Shown in pieces: positions 3,769 through 13,290 of a stretch of DNA of 64,000 bases. The notes under the pieces were generated by a model, which saw nothing but the letters and a program-made list of their open reading frames with translations, did no database searches and was not told the origin of the DNA. Numbering within the stretch: the stretch's first letter is position 1; each line of letters begins with the position of its first letter. This DNA comes from Sphingomonas bacterium (GTDB lineage Bacteria; Pseudomonadota; Alphaproteobacteria; Sphingomonadales; Sphingomonadaceae): the NCBI GenBank assembly GCA_030149245.1, contig JASBRX010000035.1:1-64000 (forward strand), in the 5' to 3' direction. The translations under genes and the position numbers were made by a program.

Positions 3769-4503
3769 GTGTCAGGGAGTTGTTTCGCGGAGATTCTGGA
3801 CGAGCTGGTCACGCTCGTGCCGGGAGAGAGGGCCGCGCTCGAGCGTCTGGAGGAACGTCAGCGCCATATCCGGCGTGGCGCGATCCTGCTGCGCGAGAAT
3901 GAGCCAGCGGATGAATTGTATATTCTGCGCAAGGGACTGGTGATGAGCTATGTCCTGCTCGACGATGGCAGCCGCCAGATCCTGCGCTTCCACTTTCCCG
4001 GTGACGTGCTGGGCATTTCCAGCATCGTCTATCGCGAGGCGCCCGAAACCTTGTCAGCCCTGTCCGACTGCGTGGTGTGCCCGTTCGATCGCCAGGCGTT
4101 CAGCGCGCTGTGCGTCGCGCATCCGCGCCTGTCGTCGCTGATTCTGGTGCTGTGCCAGATCGAGCGGGTGGCGCTGACCGACCGCCTCGCCGCGCTCGGC
4201 CGCACCTCGGCCAAGGCGCGCGTCGCGGCACTGCTGCTCGAACTGCGCAACCGGCTGCGCGGCACCGACAAGACGATCGACAAGGCGTTCAACCTGGGCC
4301 TGACTCAGGAAGAGATCGGCGACGCGACCGGCCTCACTTCGGTCCATGTCAACCGCATGCTGCGCCAGCTGGAGGAAGAGGGCATGATCGGCCGCGAATC
4401 GGGCCGGGTCACGCTGATCGACGAAGCGGCACTCGCGCGCGCGGCGAATTATGTGAACCGGTATGAAGGGCTGGATCTGAGCTGGCTGCCGGAACCGCGC
4501 TGA
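3769..4503 (+). CDS. Crp/Fnr family transcriptional regulator
   Basis: cNMP-binding domain followed by C-terminal HTH 'LTQEEIGDATGLTSVHVNRMLRQLEEEGMI'; GTG start at 3769 behind a purine-rich RBS is likely. Confidence 0.88.
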   Translation: MSGSCFAEILDELVTLVPGERAALERLEERQRHIRRGAILLRENEPADELYILRKGLVMSYVLLDDGSRQILRFHFPGDVLGISSIVYREAPETLSALSDCVVCPFDRQAFSALCVAHPRLSSLILVLCQIERVALTDRLAALGRTSAKARVAALLLELRNRLRGTDKTIDKAFNLGLTQEEIGDATGLTSVHVNRMLRQLEEEGMIGRESGRVTLIDEAALARAANYVNRYEGLDLSWLPEPR

Positions 4504-4510
4504 GCGGATC

Positions 4511-4593
4511 GTCGTCCCGGGCTTGACCCGGGACCGGGCTCCTCTTTCTACGGGCCAAAGGACAGCCCAGCCCGGGGTCGAGCCCGGGGCGAC
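4511..4593. repeat. Palindromic intergenic repeat family B, copy 1 (convergent gap)
   Basis: gtcgtcccgggcttgacccgggaccgggct ... agcccagcccggggtcgagcccggggcgac; similar to copies at 29978 and 47145. Confidence 0.8.
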
Positions 4594-4602
4594 GGTGGGA
4601 CG

Positions 4603-4971
4603 CTACGCCTTTTCCAGCGTGCATTGCAGCGGATGCTGGTTCTGCCGCGCGAAATCCATCACCTGCGCGACCTTGGTCTCCGCGACCTCATAGCTGAATA
4701 CGCCGCACACCCCGACGCCGCGCTGATGCACTGCGAGCATCACGCGTGTCGCCTCTTCCATGTCCATTTTGAAGAAGCGCTGGAGCACCAGCACGACGAA
4801 CTCCATCGGCGTGTAATCGTCGTTGAGCATCAACACGCGATAGGGCGTCGGTTTCTTGGTCTTGGCGCGCGTGCGGGTGACGACACCGGTGTTGGTGCCT
4901 TCGTCATCGTCGCGATCGGAATCGCTCATCGTGATCGGAGCCATCGAGTTGGTGGTGCGCAGCGCTGTCAT
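4603..4971 (-). CDS. clpS: ATP-dependent Clp protease adaptor ClpS
   Basis: '[59 protein letters not shown]'. Confidence 0.95.
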
Positions 4972-5974: not shown

Positions 5975-7837
5975 TTAGCGCGTTCGAACGTAACGTCCCG
6001 GGGCAGCGCCAAGTTCCTCGTTGACGCTAGGGATTCTTGCCTTTTCTGCCGAAACCCGTGCAGCATCCAGCTGTTCGATCCACTTGACCCAATCGGGCCA
6101 CCAGCTACCCTTGGTCTCGGTCGCGCCTGCAACAAAATCGTCCAGATTTGCTGCACCTGCCTCATTGATCCAGTATTGATATTTCCCTGATGACGGCGGG
6201 TTGACCACGCCCGCAATATGCCCCGATCCGGCGAGGACGAAGCGGATCGGCCCGGCCAGATGCCGGGTCAGCTTCCACACGCTGCGCGGCGGTGCGATAT
6301 GATCCTCACGCCCCGCCTGGACATAAGCGGGCGTCATCACCTTGGTCAGGTCGATCGGCGTCCCTCCGATCGCCAGCGCGCCCGGCTGGATCAACAGATT
6401 GTCGCGATACAGGTCGGACAGATAGCTGGCATGCCACTTCGCGGGCAGATTGGTAACGTCCGAATTCCAGTGGAGTAGGTCGAACGGCGTATAATCCTCG
6501 CCCAGCAGGTAATTGCTGGTGACATAGTTCCAGATCAGGTCGCGCCCGCGCAGCAGGTTGAAAGTCGCGGCCATATAGCGTCCGTCGAGGAAGCCGTCGC
6601 TGGTCAGCGACTGGATCAGCGCCAATTGCTCGTCGTCGACGAACACGTTGAGGTCGCCCGCCTCGCTGAAATCGACCTGCGCTGTGAAGAAGGTCGCGCT
6701 CTTGACCTTCGCTGCCTCGCCCCGCGCGGCCAGCACCGCCAGCGTCGCGGCGAGCGTCGTGCCGGCGACACAATAGCCGATCGCGTGGACGCTCTCGACG
6801 CCCAGCAATTCGCGGATCGTGTCGATCGCATCGATCTGCCCGCGCTCGACATAATCGTCCCACACCACATCGGCCATGCTCGCATCGGCCGATTTCCACG
6901 AGACGACGAACACCGTCAGCCCCTGCTCCACCGCCCAGCGGATGAAGCTTTTCTCCGGCGTCAGGTCGAGGATGTAGAAGCGGTTGATCCAGGGCGGGAA
7001 GATCACCAGCGGGGTTTCGAACACCGTGTCGGTCGTCGGCGAATATTGGATCAGCTCATAGAGCGGGGTGCGCTTGACCACCCGGCCCGGCGTGGTCGCG
7101 ATATTTTCGCCGACCGCGAATGCGCCCTCGACCGTCTGGGTCATCTGCCCCTTGCCCATGTCCTTGAGCATATGCGCGAGGCCCTTGAGCAGATTCTCGC
7201 CCTTGGTCTCGATCGTCCGTTCGACCACCAGCGGGTTGGTCGCGGGGAAGTTGCTCGGGCTCATCGCGTCGATGAACCCCTGCGTTGCGAAGCGCAGCTG
7301 TTCCTTCTGCTTTGGGGCTAGGCCTTCGATCTGGTCAACGCCCTTGAGCAGATGGTTCGACAGCGTGAGGTAGCTCTGGCGGATGAAGTCGAACACGGGC
7401 TGTTCGCGCCATTGCGGCGCCTTGAAGCGTTTGTCGCGCGCCTGTTCGGGGGTTTCCTCGAACTTGGGTGCGGCGGCAGGGTCGAGGAAGCGCTGCCACA
7501 ATGTCATCGTATCGGCCCAGAACTCCGCGCCCGCGCGCATCGCTGCGGCGGGGTCGACTGGCGGCACGGTCGGCATCTGGGGCATCGCGGGCATGTGCAC
7601 GGGCATCTGACCAGCCAGATCCAGCCCCTGCTCCATCATCATCTGCTGCGCGCGCCCAAACACCCAGGTCCAGTGTTGGAGGTCCTCCAGAGCAGGCTTG
7701 GTTTCAGCTGCGGCCTCAGGGGCGGGCTTGGGATCGGGCTTCGGCTTTGCCGTGCGCTTCGCCTTTGGCTTTGCGGTGGCTGTGGTGGTGTCAGGCTTCG
7801 TCTTTGCGGTCGTCGTTTTTTTCTTTGCCGTCGCCAC
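5975..7837 (-). CDS. phaC: Class I poly(R)-hydroxyalkanoic acid synthase
   Basis: PhaC core '...[21 protein letters not shown]...' (lipase-box-like GYCVAG), '[12 protein letters not shown]', '[12 protein letters not shown]'; GTG start proposed at 7837 ([10 protein letters not shown]). Confidence 0.93.
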
Positions 7838-7925
7838 GCGCCTCTCCTCTGGCTTGCCGCCCCGCCCCCTGTATAACGAGGCATCGCGCGCAGCGCACCA
7901 CCCCGAGGAGCCGGAACCCAAGACG

Positions 7926-9131
7926 ATGTCCGAAGAATTCTACCGCATGAAGCGCCTGCCCCCCTATGTCATCGCCGAAGTCAACGCGATGCGGGCAGCG
8001 GCGCGCGCGGCGGGAGAGGACATTATCGACCTGGGCATGGGCAATCCCGACCTGCCGCCGCCCGACCATGTCATCGAAAAGCTGATCGAAGTCGCGCGCA
8101 AGCCCGACGCGCATGGCTACTCGCAGTCGAAGGGCATCCCCGGACTGCGCCGCGCCCAGGCGAACTAGTATGGCCGCCGTTTTGGCGTCGATATCGATCC
8201 CGATAGCGAGGTCGTCGTGACGATGGGGTCGAAGGAGGGGCTGGCCAGCCTTGCCACCGCGATCACCGCACCGGGCGATGTCGTGCTCGCGCCCAACCCC
8301 AGCTACCCGATCCACACCTTCGGTTTCATCCTTGCGGGCGCGACGATCCGCGCGGTGCCGACGACGCCCAACGAGGCCTATTTCGAGAGCCTGGAACGCG
8401 CGATCGCGTTCACCGTGCCGCGCCCGAGCATCCTCGTCGTCAACTATCCGTCGAACCCGACGGCGGAGACGGTCGACCTGGCTTTCTACGAGCGGCTGGT
8501 GGCGTGGGCGAAGGAGAACAAGGTCTGGATCCTGTCCGACCTTGCCTATTCGGAGCTGTATTTTGACGGCAAGCCGACGGTTTCGATCCTGCAGGTGCCG
8601 GGCGCGAAGGATATCGCGATCGAGTTTACCTCGCTCAGCAAGACCTATTCGATGGCCGGATGGCGGATGGGGTTCGCGGTCGGCAACAAGCAGCTGATCG
8701 CGGCGATGACGCGGGTAAAATCGTACCTCGACTATGGCGCCTTCACACCGATCCAGGCGGCGGCATGCGCCGCACTCAACGGCCCGCAGGATATCGTTGA
8801 GAAGAACCGCCAGCTTTACCACAAGCGCCGCGACGTGCTGGTCGAGAGCTTCGGCCGCGCCGGATGGGACATCCCGCCCCCGCCTGCCTCGATGTTCGCC
8901 TGGGCCCCGCTCCCGCCCGCGCTGGCGCACCTGGGCAGCCTTGAATTTTCCAAGCAGCTGCTGACCCATGCCAAGGTCGCGGTCGCGCCGGGCGTCGGCT
9001 ATGGCGAGAATGGCGAAGGGTTCGTGCGCATCGCGATGGTCGAGAATGAACAGCGGCTGCGCCAGGCGGCACGCAACGTGAAGAAGTATCTCCAGTCGAT
9101 GGGCGTCAACACCGGCGTGAAATCCGCCTGA
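7926..9131 (+). pseudogene. Class I/II PLP-dependent aminotransferase (AlaC / LL-diaminopimelate aminotransferase-like) interrupted by an in-frame TAG at 8166-8168
   Basis: Same frame on both sides: ...[47 protein letters not shown]...; family motifs intact downstream (SLSKTYSMAGWRMGFAVG). Confidence 0.85.
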
Positions 9132-9134
9132 GCC

Positions 9135-9854
9135 ATGGCGATACGTCGTCGCATCTCGGACGCGACCGCCCGACGGCAAAGGTGGCGAGAGTTTCTGGAC
9201 TTTGCTGATCGCCACGGCAGCCCGCATTGGCTGTTTCGGGGCGTCGCGGACAAAGAGAAGCATTTACTCGTGCCCAAGATCGGACGTGACAAGGCGCGAT
9301 ACGATGCCGGCATAGAACGGGTGCTGTTCCGCAACTTCGAGCGCCGTGCCCGTCAGTTCGTCGATGTCGGATCTCTTTCGCCCTGGGATTTGCTCGCGCT
9401 TGGCCAGCATCACGGTCTTCCGACGAGGCTCCTCGATTGGTCAACAAACCCGCTGGTCGCGGCATTCTTTGCGGTTAGCAGCGAGCCTCGCAAAGAGGTT
9501 GCGCGGGTCTATGCTTATCAGGCAGGCAACGTTATCGACCCGGCGATTGAGCATGATCCGTTCACGATAACCGATGTGGCTGTTCATATCCCTTCATCAA
9601 TCGCACCTCGGATCATCTCGCAACGTGGCGTGTTCACAGTCCATCCTGACCCGACAATTCCGCTTGCTCCCGCTGGCGGAGCGACAGGCGATCACTATTT
9701 TGATATTGAACCGATCGACCGGCCCTATTTCGAACGGCGGCTGTTCGGAATTGCGATCGATCCCAGCGTGATCGGCGCAGACTTGGATGGCCTGTGTCGC
9801 ACGTTGAATTGGCAGTACGAGCGCGGCGTCGCACTCGGAAAGGTAGTGTTCTGA
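9135..9854 (+). CDS. FRG domain-containing protein
   Basis: 'HWLFRGVADKEKHLLVPKIGR' and 'QHHGLPTRLLDWSTNPLVAAFFAV' are FRG-domain hallmarks; starts 4 nt after the aminotransferase stop. Confidence 0.88.
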   Translation: MAIRRRISDATARRQRWREFLDFADRHGSPHWLFRGVADKEKHLLVPKIGRDKARYDAGIERVLFRNFERRARQFVDVGSLSPWDLLALGQHHGLPTRLLDWSTNPLVAAFFAVSSEPRKEVARVYAYQAGNVIDPAIEHDPFTITDVAVHIPSSIAPRIISQRGVFTVHPDPTIPLAPAGGATGDHYFDIEPIDRPYFERRLFGIAIDPSVIGADLDGLCRTLNWQYERGVALGKVVF

Positions 9855-10195
9855 TGGCAAGCACGGCATTTCGCTCCGACCCCCGGCGCGAACAGATCGC
9901 TGAGGCGCTGCAGAATATTGAGATCAGTGACCTCGACATCTGGGACGATCTGGACATTCTTTCGACCCACACTCGGGTCGAGGCGTTCGAAGTCCCCGTC
10001 GAAGGAATTATCCTCGGTCCGGGCAACCGTTTCTCTGCGGTTCTGAACCTCTATCTTACGCTACAATATGGGAAGGACGACGACGATGGCTTCACGACGT
10101 CTGACAGTTTCGTCGCAATCGTCAAAGGTCAACTGGAGGGTGAGGCTCTCACGGTTGACTCTTCCAGCGTAGATACATCGTCATTCTACGAGTGA
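9854..10195 (+). CDS. Small acidic hypothetical protein coupled to the FRG gene
   Basis: ATG overlaps the FRG stop (TGATG at 9852-9856); MASTAFRSDPRREQIAEALQNIEISDLDIWDDLDILSTH...; no family recognised. Confidence 0.8.
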   Translation: MASTAFRSDPRREQIAEALQNIEISDLDIWDDLDILSTHTRVEAFEVPVEGIILGPGNRFSAVLNLYLTLQYGKDDDDGFTTSDSFVAIVKGQLEGEALTVDSSSVDTSSFYE

Positions 10196-10221
10196 TCGCC
10201 GAACCCGCTTTGGCTCTAAGC

Positions 10222-10257
10222 AAAAAAGGGGCGCCCCGGTCGGAGCGCCCCTTTCCT
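10222..10257. terminator. Bidirectional rho-independent terminator between convergent genes
   Basis: aaaaaaggggcgccccggtcggagcgcccctttcctt: stem aaaggggcgc/gcgccccttt with A/T-rich flanks. Confidence 0.8.
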
Positions 10258-10274
10258 TTACCGGTCCGCAGCGA

Positions 10275-10859
10275 TCAGAAGCGGAAGCCGAAACCGACCG
10301 ACGCCTGACGGCGCTGCAGGTTGAAGCCGGTGCCGTAGAAGTCGCCGAAATCGGCGTAAGCGCCTTCGACATTGATATAGGCATTCTTCGACACCGCGAT
10401 TTCGACGCCGAGCGCGCCATAGACGCCGCCCTTGCTGTCGGACGCGGTGGTCGCGCCGCTGGTCGCTTCGATCGTCAGCGAGGCATAGCCGAGCTTGCCG
10501 TAGAGCGCAGTGGTCGGGCTCAGTTCGACGCCGACGCGACCGCCAGCGGCCAGATTGCCCTTGACCTTAAGGCAGTCGGGGCCGTCGCACAGTTCGACGC
10601 CCGAAAATTCATAGTTCACGAACGGACCGACAGTGACCTTGTTGCTGACCGCGAGGTCGAAACCGATTTCGGCGCCATAGGACACCGCGCTGCCGATCTT
10701 GTAGATGTCGCCATCGCCGCTGACGGTCGGGGTTTCGTAGCCGAGACGTGCCTCGATGCGCGCGCCGTCGAACAAATTGCCGGCCGACGCTTCTTCCTGC
10801 GCGAACGCGACGCCGGGCAGGCACGACAATGCCGCCGCAGCGACCAGAAGCTTCTTCAT
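10275..10859 (-). CDS. Outer membrane beta-barrel protein
   Basis: Signal peptide MKKLLVAAAALSCLPGVAFAQ, alternating beta-strand pattern, C-terminal 'QRRQASVGFGFRF' ending in F. Confidence 0.85.
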   Translation of the reverse strand: MKKLLVAAAALSCLPGVAFAQEEASAGNLFDGARIEARLGYETPTVSGDGDIYKIGSAVSYGAEIGFDLAVSNKVTVGPFVNYEFSGVELCDGPDCLKVKGNLAAGGRVGVELSPTTALYGKLGYASLTIEATSGATTASDSKGGVYGALGVEIAVSKNAYINVEGAYADFGDFYGTGFNLQRRQASVGFGFRF

Positions 10860-11026
10860 AATTCCCCCTTATCGGTGGCCGGAGTGGCCTGAAATACCCG
10901 CCATAAGTGTTTGATTCGACGGGCGCGCCGCCGATATTGCGGCGTGACTTCGCCGTCCATCCGAATTTCTTGCGAACGTGGGAACGGGTGATTGAATTCG
11001 GGACAGTGTTGCGCCAGTGCAACGAC

Positions 11027-11443
11027 ATGACTCGTCCCGGCTTTGCCTTTTCTCACCGACTGCGCGTGCGCTATGCCGAAATTGACGGGCAGAAGGTCGT
11101 GTTTAACTCCCGCTACCTTGAATATGCCGATGTCGCGCTCAGCGAATATTGGCGCTGGCTGCGGCTCGCCGAGCTGGCCGAATGGCGCGATATGGAATTT
11201 CACGTCGCGCGCGCCACGGTCGATTACAAGGCGCCGTTCCGGTACGATGACGAATTCGACGCCTTTGCCCGCACCGCGCGGATCGGCACGTCGAGCGTGA
11301 CCAGCCTGATCGAGCTGGTGCATGCCCAAACCGGCGCGCTGCACACGGTGATCGAGCTGGTCCATGTCAATGTCGACCTGGCGGCTGGACGGTCGGCGCC
11401 GATCCCGCCCGATATCCGCCACCGCATGCTCGGAAGCGATTGA
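11027..11443 (+). CDS. Acyl-CoA thioesterase (4HBT/hotdog family)
   Basis: 'HRLRVRYAEIDGQKVVFNSRYLEYADVALSEYWRWL' is a 4HBT-type motif. Confidence 0.85.
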   Translation: MTRPGFAFSHRLRVRYAEIDGQKVVFNSRYLEYADVALSEYWRWLRLAELAEWRDMEFHVARATVDYKAPFRYDDEFDAFARTARIGTSSVTSLIELVHAQTGALHTVIELVHVNVDLAAGRSAPIPPDIRHRMLGSD

Positions 11444-11514
11444 TTTTGGGGGATACGCGCTCGCCCGCAGGCGCGGGAAACGCCCCGTTAACGGGTCGGG
11501 ACTAACCTCCCGCC

Positions 11515-13290
11515 ATGCGCCGCAGTCGCCTGTCTCAATCCAATTTCCTGGTCGTTGCCGCAGTCGCGCTGGCCTATTTCCTGTGCGCGGTCGGCGCGAT
11601 CGCCTTCACCCGGCTGAGCGGTCATGTCGCGCTGCTGTGGCTCGCTACCGCGCTGCTGGTCGGGGCGCTGTTGACGCGCCCGGCGACCGAGCGTCCGCTG
11701 CACATTGCGAGTTGCTTCGCGGCGTCGGTCGCGGCCTCGCTTGCCGTGTCGCCCTATGCGCCGCTCGCGCCCGTGTTCGGCGTGGCGAACATCGTCGAAG
11801 CGCTGATCGCCTGGGCACTGCTGCGCGGGCTCGGCGTGGATGCGCGCATGTTCCTTTCGTTGCGAGCGCTCGCCGTGTTCGTTGCGACGGCGGGCGTGGT
11901 GGCACCGCTCGCCAGCGGGGTGATCCCGGCCATCACACTCCCACTCTATCAGGGGGCTGACCCGTGGGCGGTTTGGCTGAGCTGGGCCATCGGCCATGGC
12001 CTGGGCGCGCTCATCGGAACCCCGATCGCTCTGCTCGCGCTGGCAGGAGCGACCTATCGCGACCGGTTCAGTGGCCCCGCCGCATTGCCGCGCTTTGTGG
12101 GGATCACGCTGCTGATGGGTGGAGTGACCGGCCTGTGCTTCGCGCAGTCACACCTGCCGCTGTTGTTCGTGCCGATCCTACCGCTGATCGCCGCCACCAT
12201 GGCGTTTCGCGTGGCCGGAGCGACGCTGGGCGTGTTCCTGATCGCGCTGATCGGGGCGGCCTTTACCGTCATGGGCATGGGACCGCTGGAGTTGATCGAC
12301 GGCAGCGACGCGTTCCAGCTGCAATTCTTCCAATTCTACCTCGCCGTGCTGTTCCTGATCGCGGTCCCGTTCGCGACGATGATCGCGCAGAATCAGCGCC
12401 TCGCCGCCTCGGTGGCGCTGAGCGAGGCACGCTACCGGCTTATCTCCGAACATGTGTCCGACGTCGTCCTGACACTCGATCCCAGGGGGGCGGTGCAGTT
12501 CGCCTCGCCGTCGATGCGTGAGGTGACCGGTCACGCCCCGGAATCGATCATTGGCAAAAGCCCTGCGGAGCTGGTCCACGAAGTCGATCGCGAACGGGTG
12601 CGCGAAGCCTATCGCCATGTGATCGCGGAGCCTGAACGGGTCCACCGGTTCGAATTTCGCGGCCATACCGCGACCGGCGGCATCCGCTGGTTCGAGACGA
12701 CCGCACGCGCCGTCCGCGACACCGACCAGGCGGTACTGAGCGTCGTCACGGTCGTGCGCGAGGTGAGTCAGCGCAAGGCGCGCGAAGCCGATCTGCTGCG
12801 CCAGGCGAATACCGATCCGATGACCGGCGTGCTCAACCGCCGCGCGTTCCAGGATCGGATCGACCAGTTTCGCAGCAACACGCCCGACCGGCCGGGCGCG
12901 CTGGCCTTGTTCGATCTCGACCATTTCAAGCGGGTCAATGACGGCCACGGCCATGACGCGGGCGACGCCGCGCTGCTGCATTTCGCGGATGTGCTCCGCG
13001 CCAATCTGCGCGTCGAGGACGTGATCGGGCGCCTGGGCGGTGAGGAATTCGCGGTGCTGTTCCCCGGCCTCTCGACCACCGCCGCGATGGTGGCGTGCGA
13101 GCGGGTGCGCAGCTCGCTGCAGGATGCGCGCATCCATGCCGGCGACACAACCTTCACGATTACGGTCAGCGCCGGGGTCGCGCCGATCCGCCCCGACCTG
13201 TCGTCGGACGAAGTGTTCCGCATCGCCGATGCTGCGCTCTATCGCGCCAAGTCGCGCGGCCGCAACCGCAGCGAACTCGCGGCGGCCTGA
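11515..13290 (+). CDS. MASE1-like membrane sensor, PAS domain and GGDEF diguanylate cyclase
   Basis: N-terminal multi-TM region, PAS ('SEHVSDVVLTLDPRGAVQFASPSMREVTGHAPESIIGKS'), GGDEF domain 'LFDLDHFKRVNDGHGHDAGD...IGRLGGEEFAVLFPG'. Confidence 0.9.
   Translation: MRRSRLSQSNFLVVAAVALAYFLCAVGAIAFTRLSGHVALLWLATALLVGALLTRPATERPLHIASCFAASVAASLAVSPYAPLAPVFGVANIVEALIAWALLRGLGVDARMFLSLRALAVFVATAGVVAPLASGVIPAITLPLYQGADPWAVWLSWAIGHGLGALIGTPIALLALAGATYRDRFSGPAALPRFVGITLLMGGVTGLCFAQSHLPLLFVPILPLIAATMAFRVAGATLGVFLIALIGAAFTVMGMGPLELIDGSDAFQLQFFQFYLAVLFLIAVPFATMIAQNQRLAASVALSEARYRLISEHVSDVVLTLDPRGAVQFASPSMREVTGHAPESIIGKSPAELVHEVDRERVREAYRHVIAEPERVHRFEFRGHTATGGIRWFETTARAVRDTDQAVLSVVTVVREVSQRKAREADLLRQANTDPMTGVLNRRAFQDRIDQFRSNTPDRPGALALFDLDHFKRVNDGHGHDAGDAALLHFADVLRANLRVEDVIGRLGGEEFAVLFPGLSTTAAMVACERVRSSLQDARIHAGDTTFTITVSAGVAPIRPDLSSDEVFRIADAALYRAKSRGRNRSELAAA

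What the first reader, a model, noticed from the sequence alone, without database searches (positions are those of the whole stretch)
9135..10198. Compact two-gene FRG-domain module: possible undescribed defence or toxin-antidote pair
Seen: an FRG-domain protein (LFRG and HGLPTRLLDW motifs) is followed by a 113-aa acidic protein whose ATG overlaps the FRG stop (TGATG), closed by a strong bidirectional terminator at 10222-10257. Hand-counted GC in sample lines is lower here (9541-9600 about 48%, 10081-10140 about 55%) than in the adjacent aminotransferase (8461-8520 about 67%), suggesting later acquisition. Established: FRG domains are poorly characterised and recur in accessory genome regions. 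Inference: FRG is the effector and the acidic protein its partner, neutraliser or sensor.
Basis: partly seen in the sequence, partly recalled or inferred. Interest (0 to 1): 0.66.

Follow-up and report, generated by a model that had tools for sequence, protein, structure and literature searches.

The report
Mobile FRG effector and partner cassette
A two-gene cassette, probably an NAD-using defence enzyme plus a small non-enzymatic partner, was dropped cleanly behind a housekeeping gene; the pair is conserved across alphaproteobacteria, but its partner and its defence role are uncharacterised.

Summary
An FRG-domain gene (9135-9854) and a 113-aa acidic gene (9854-10195) overlap by one base. Fifteen alphaproteobacterial loci carry the same pair in the same order, gap -1 to +14 nt. 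Both genes are under purifying selection and co-diverge (r=0.89). The FRG tree puts the partner in one well-supported clade, with one loss (Methylobacterium, L007).
A near relative (L048) has an exact empty site. The cassette is 9132-10220 (1,089 bp, GC 57% against 66%), inserted between the aminotransferase stop and its terminator. That terminator therefore belongs to the site, not to the module.
The FRG protein matches PADLOC candidate PDC-S15, and its model's nearest folds are ADP-ribosyltransferases (weak scores, one kind of answer). The partner is Pfam PF18166, named 'pPIWI-associating nuclease', but it has no catalytic signature and models as a small alpha+beta domain.
Elsewhere the pair ends a QueC/deoxyribosyltransferase operon (four loci), next to SIR2-HerA (two), or near a type IIG restriction enzyme (one).
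Best reading: a mobile two-gene NAD-consuming effector whose partner sets its activity. Strict toxin-antidote is less likely, because L007 keeps an FRG without partner. New variant of a known kind; function untested.

The parts
9132..10220 (+). Whole inserted cassette (1,089 bp) carrying both genes
   Evidence: Relative L048 aligns to window 7001-9131 and then directly to 10221-11702; none of the 29 relatives' loci L048-L076 holds either gene here
9135..9854 (+). FRG-domain gene, 239 aa; predicted ADP-ribosyltransferase-like effector
   Evidence: PF08867 E 9e-23; PADLOC PDC-S15 E 4e-64; model pLDDT 92; nearest solved folds are ADP-ribosyltransferases at weak E-values
9854..10195 (+). Partner gene, 113 aa, acidic, PF18166 domain
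   Evidence: PF18166 E 8e-10; matches the last 95 residues of PADLOC Aga_Nuclease E 9e-6; model pLDDT 85, two helices plus antiparallel sheet
9852..9856 (+). TGATG stop/start overlap of the two genes
   Evidence: short gaps in all relatives measured (-1 to +14 nt)
10222..10257 (.). Inverted-repeat terminator, part of the insertion site rather than of the cassette
   Evidence: Directly behind the aminotransferase stop in L048
7926..9131 (+). Upstream class I/II aminotransferase behind whose stop the cassette sits; carries an in-frame TAG at 8166-8168

Best explanation
A horizontally moved two-gene defence-type module. The FRG protein is the effector: an ADP-ribosyltransferase-superfamily enzyme that, when triggered, uses NAD+ to modify a cell component or to deplete NAD+, stopping growth and phage multiplication. 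The partner is a non-enzymatic subunit, made by coupled translation, that binds the FRG protein and sets its activity, by holding it in check until a trigger arrives or by coupling it to a sensor. Shown here: gene structure, conserved linkage, co-divergence, purifying selection, clean insertion, domain matches. Inferred: enzyme activity, physical complex, trigger, defence.
For: Pair in 15 alphaproteobacterial loci, same order and strand, gaps -1 to +14 nt. One supported FRG clade holds all of them (97/95). Distance matrices correlate at 0.886, 0 of 5000 permutations. dN/dS 0.05-0.28 in close pairs for both genes. FRG: PDC-S15; the first 29 solved-structure neighbours are ADP-ribosyltransferases; published placement of Frg in the ART superfamily as a likely immune NADase (PMC9503650). 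Partner: no conserved catalytic residues, no nuclease-like fold. FRG proteins with partner are basic (median pI 8.8 against 6.25 without) and most partners acidic. Defence neighbours: SIR2-HerA, type IIG enzyme, QueC operon. Sporadic: partner in 1 of 201 family genomes, 2 of 385 class genomes. Empty site.
Against: No experiment. The ART fold matches all have E above 0.01 and TM about 0.2-0.3, so superfamily membership rests on consistency plus literature. The window copy and L003, L012, L041 sit among core genes, not in defence islands. The acid/base contrast is confounded by descent and fails in the Microvirga branch, where partner pI is 5.5-6.2. No co-complex could be modelled.
Confidence: 0.55

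Rival explanations
1. Classical toxin-antitoxin pair: FRG is a toxin always neutralised by the partner; the pair persists by addiction, defence being secondary.
For: Tight coupling, small acidic second gene that diverges faster than FRG (42% against 59% identity to L003), solitary insertion among core genes. RES-Xre, another ART-type toxin pair, is an analogue (general knowledge).
Against: L007 keeps an FRG with all the invariant residues and no partner within 5 kb. FRG genes outside the clade, including 80 loci of viral contigs, have no recognisable partner. The partner's domain matches the C-terminus of pAgo-associated nucleases, so it is not an FRG-specific antidote fold.
Confidence: 0.22
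2. The pair is an accessory ADP-ribosylation or nucleotide-modifying enzyme with its specificity subunit, acting on nucleic acid or base metabolism rather than as a suicide effector.
For: In four loci the pair ends an operon with a glycosylase-like protein, a PfkB-nucleoside deoxyribosyltransferase and a QueC-family enzyme.
Against: The pair also stands alone in at least four places (window, L003, L012, L041), and QueC-family enzymes themselves occur in antiphage systems (PMC13279940).
Confidence: 0.12
3. The partner is the catalytic part, a nuclease as its Pfam name says, with FRG as its regulator.
For: PF18166 is named 'Predicted pPIWI-associating nuclease'.
Against: No invariant acidic, Lys or His residue in 16 homologues; only W30 and F60 are invariant. 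Modelled fold is two helices plus an antiparallel sheet, unlike PD-(D/E)XK. FRG holds the invariant polar residues R35, H92, R159, Q163.
Confidence: 0.03
4. A decaying passenger of no present function in this strain.
For: Very rare in relatives; no promoter-like site in the cassette; the upstream aminotransferase carries a nonsense codon.
Against: Both frames intact, with all conserved residues; purifying selection across the family.
Confidence: 0.08

Closest known systems
PADLOC phage defence candidate PDC-S15 (single-gene FRG)
   Same: FRG protein matches at E 4e-64 over residues 13-229
   Different: PDC-S15 is listed as one gene and is uncharacterised (PMC12482510); here a second gene is a fixed part of one clade
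FRG clade of the ADP-ribosyltransferase superfamily (PMC9503650)
   Same: Same domain; reported as a likely immune effector or NADase; our model's nearest folds are ARTs
   Different: In the three passages where that paper names Frg, no PF18166 partner is mentioned
PF18166 pP_pnuc_2 / PADLOC Aga_Nuclease
   Same: Partner equals the PF18166 domain and the last 95 residues of Aga_Nuclease
   Different: Stand-alone and non-catalytic here; no Argonaute gene seen in the window
QueC-cluster-4 operons with PfkB-deoxyribosyltransferase (PMC13329287)
   Same: Four pair loci sit at the 3' end of such an operon
   Different: A search of that paper for FRG and ADP-ribosyl found neither; the window copy has no QueC operon
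Two-gene ART toxin pairs such as RES-Xre
   Same: NAD-using effector plus small neighbour gene (general knowledge)
   Different: Effector first, unrelated partner fold, partner dispensable in L007

Membership tests
FRG domain family (PF08867) | Profile match over the curated cut-off | tested here: met
   81.4 bits against cut-off 25
PADLOC PDC-S15 | Full-length match to a PDC-S15 model | tested here: met
   E 4e-64, residues 13-229
PADLOC PDC-S15 | Antiphage activity | not testable with these tools
   Needs phage challenge; described as uncharacterised in PMC12482510
ADP-ribosyltransferase superfamily | ART fold | tested here: inconclusive
   First 29 PDB neighbours are ARTs, but best E 0.018 and TM about 0.3
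ADP-ribosyltransferase superfamily | Catalytic triad (R/H, S/Y, E) | tested here: inconclusive
   R35 in the first strand and the TRLLDWSTNP motif fit; the third position looks like Gln163, not Glu; mapping is inference, no superposition at hand
PF18166 pP_pnuc_2 | Profile match over the curated cut-off | tested here: met
   39.4 bits against 25; four other partners also pass
PD-(D/E)XK nuclease | Conserved D...(D/E)XK residues and alpha/beta/alpha core | tested here: not met
   Only W30 and F60 invariant; antiparallel sheet
Prokaryotic Argonaute system | Argonaute gene next to the effector | tested here: not met
   None among the PADLOC hits of the window's ORFs
Type II toxin-antitoxin | Effector not found without partner | tested here: not met
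   L007 has an intact FRG without partner
Type II toxin-antitoxin | Partner binds and neutralises the effector | not testable with these tools
   Needs expression and binding assays

The most novel reading that the evidence does not exclude
FRG plus PF18166 is an undescribed two-component ART immune module in which the small domain is an interchangeable activation or sensing adaptor, used both by FRG enzymes and, as a fused C-terminal domain, by Argonaute-associated nucleases.
Probability: 0.3. Interest if true: 0.7.

Novelty: new variant of a known kind. Interest (0 to 1): 0.5.

Why it matters
FRG proteins are widespread, listed as phage-defence candidates, and biochemically unproven. A clade with a fixed, small partner and an exact empty site gives a compact two-gene construct and a clean with/without comparison, and hints that a domain named a nuclease is really an adaptor shared by unrelated defence effectors.

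Tried and rejected
Partner as nuclease: rejected on conservation and fold. Partner in plasmids by tblastn with the window's own protein (the Microvirga plasmid copy L010 is too diverged for that search) and in viral contigs: none found. Solved relatives by sequence: none meaningful. NTF2/cystatin-like fold for the partner: only weak matches (best E 1.6e-3, TM up to 0.5), so not claimed; viral fold library uninformative. Defence island in the window: none; the PADLOC hits of the other ORFs are isolated single matches among housekeeping genes. Wider PF18166 census: only the window's own copy in 329 phylum genomes. Target-site duplications at the insertion: none seen by eye. Literature on an FRG/PF18166 pair: none in the held papers, but the library lacks most subscription journals.

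Full report
Observation. FRG runs 9135-9854 and the partner 9854-10195, with TGA and ATG sharing one base.

What the genes are. The first protein is FRG (PF08867, E 9e-23) and matches PADLOC candidate PDC-S15 at E 4e-64. The second passes the cut-off of PF18166, 'Predicted pPIWI-associating nuclease' (E 8e-10), and matches the last 95 residues of PADLOC Aga_Nuclease.

Linkage. The genome collection gave 29 FRG loci. The gaps measured are -1 to +14 nt, always FRG first. In a 35-row tree all partner-bearing FRGs fall in one clade (97/95), with one exception inside it, L007, and one undecidable locus at a contig end, L040. More distant FRGs, including those of Bacteroidota, mycobacteria and 80 loci of viral contigs, have no detectable partner. 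Distances of the two proteins correlate (r 0.886, 0/5000 permutations), and close pairs show dN/dS of 0.05-0.28 for both genes. The small ORF is therefore a real gene, and the pair is inherited as a unit.

Acquisition. In relative L048 the aminotransferase stop is followed at once by the terminator and the outer-membrane gene. The window aligns to it through 9131 and again from 10221. The cassette is thus exactly 9132-10220. None of the 29 neighbouring-species loci L048-L076 has either gene here. Insertion in this lineage is more parsimonious than loss in all the others. No promoter-like site was found in the cassette, and FRG starts 3 nt after the aminotransferase stop. In L012 the FRG start overlaps the stop of a DUF885 gene, and in L004/L008/L009 the stop of a 396-aa gene. 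Riding on an upstream gene recurs, though not in L041.

Distribution. The partner was found in 1 of 201 family genomes, 2 of 385 class genomes and 1 of 329 phylum genomes by PF18166; in the first and last the one is the window's own. That sporadic pattern fits defence or selfish modules, not core genes.

Neighbourhoods. In L004, L005, L008 and L009 the pair ends a compact operon: Ogg-HhH glycosylase, PfkB-nucleoside deoxyribosyltransferase, QueC-family, two orphans, FRG, partner (domains named from L004; the same gene layout seen in the others). L004 and L005 also have SIR2-HerA genes downstream: two flanking ORFs match SIR2 and two match HerA models, which I assign to the ORFs at L004 7589-10466 and L005 6372-9249 from their sizes and order. 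L016 has a type IIG restriction enzyme upstream. The window copy and L003, L012, L041 sit among core genes.

Structure. The FRG model is confident (pLDDT 92). Its first 29 solved neighbours are ADP-ribosyltransferases of several kinds, but every E-value is above 0.01. This agrees with the published placement of Frg in the ART superfamily (PMC9503650). Invariant residues include R35 of the FRG motif, H92, TR and DW of TRLLDW, R159 and Q163. The match of R35 to the ART arginine and of Q163 to the usual glutamate is inference. The partner model (pLDDT 85) is two helices and an antiparallel sheet with only weak NTF2-like matches. Its 16-row alignment has no invariant acidic, Lys or His residue, so the Pfam name 'nuclease' should not be read as its function.

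Mechanism. Most likely the FRG protein is the effector and the partner a binding subunit that sets its activity. FRG proteins with a partner are more basic than those without (median pI 8.8 against 6.25) and most partners are acidic, which suits a complex but is confounded by descent. A strict antitoxin role is less likely, because L007 carries an intact FRG without partner and because the same domain is found at the C-terminus of Argonaute-associated nucleases. Enzyme activity, complex and defence remain unshown.

Novelty. FRG as a candidate effector is known. The fixed PF18166 partner, the single clade, the precise insertion and the QueC-operon association were not found in the papers searched, a library that lacks most subscription journals.

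Noticed in passing
window 8166-8168: In-frame TAG in the upstream aminotransferase; four relatives checked have a tyrosine codon (TAT) there. Either a real nonsense mutation or an error of this 83%-complete assembly.
   Followed up: yes
L004 424-6003, same layout in L005, L008, L009: Tight operon of an Ogg-HhH glycosylase, PfkB-nucleoside deoxyribosyltransferase, QueC-family protein, a 115-aa and a 396-aa orphan, then FRG and partner; it spans Rhizobiales, Roseibium and Pseudoruegeria and may be a larger unreported system.
   Followed up: partly
L014 5673-6614 and 6678-7016: Two copies of the partner domain behind one FRG; the first is fused to a LuxR/GerE-type DNA-binding domain.
   Followed up: no
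L010, L011, L013, L014 about 3816-4897: A 305-350 aa gene lies directly upstream of the FRG gene in all four Microvirga loci; no Pfam or PADLOC match for those of L010 and L014.
   Followed up: partly
L012 3232-7672 and L041 11-2265: In two sphingomonads the pair lies next to gcvPB (glycine dehydrogenase subunit 2, named by eye), possibly a second preferred insertion site.
   Followed up: partly
L007 3676-5663: Partnerless FRG orthologue follows what looks like a PfkB/deoxyribosyltransferase-like gene by eye; no Pfam hit at 1e-5.
   Followed up: partly
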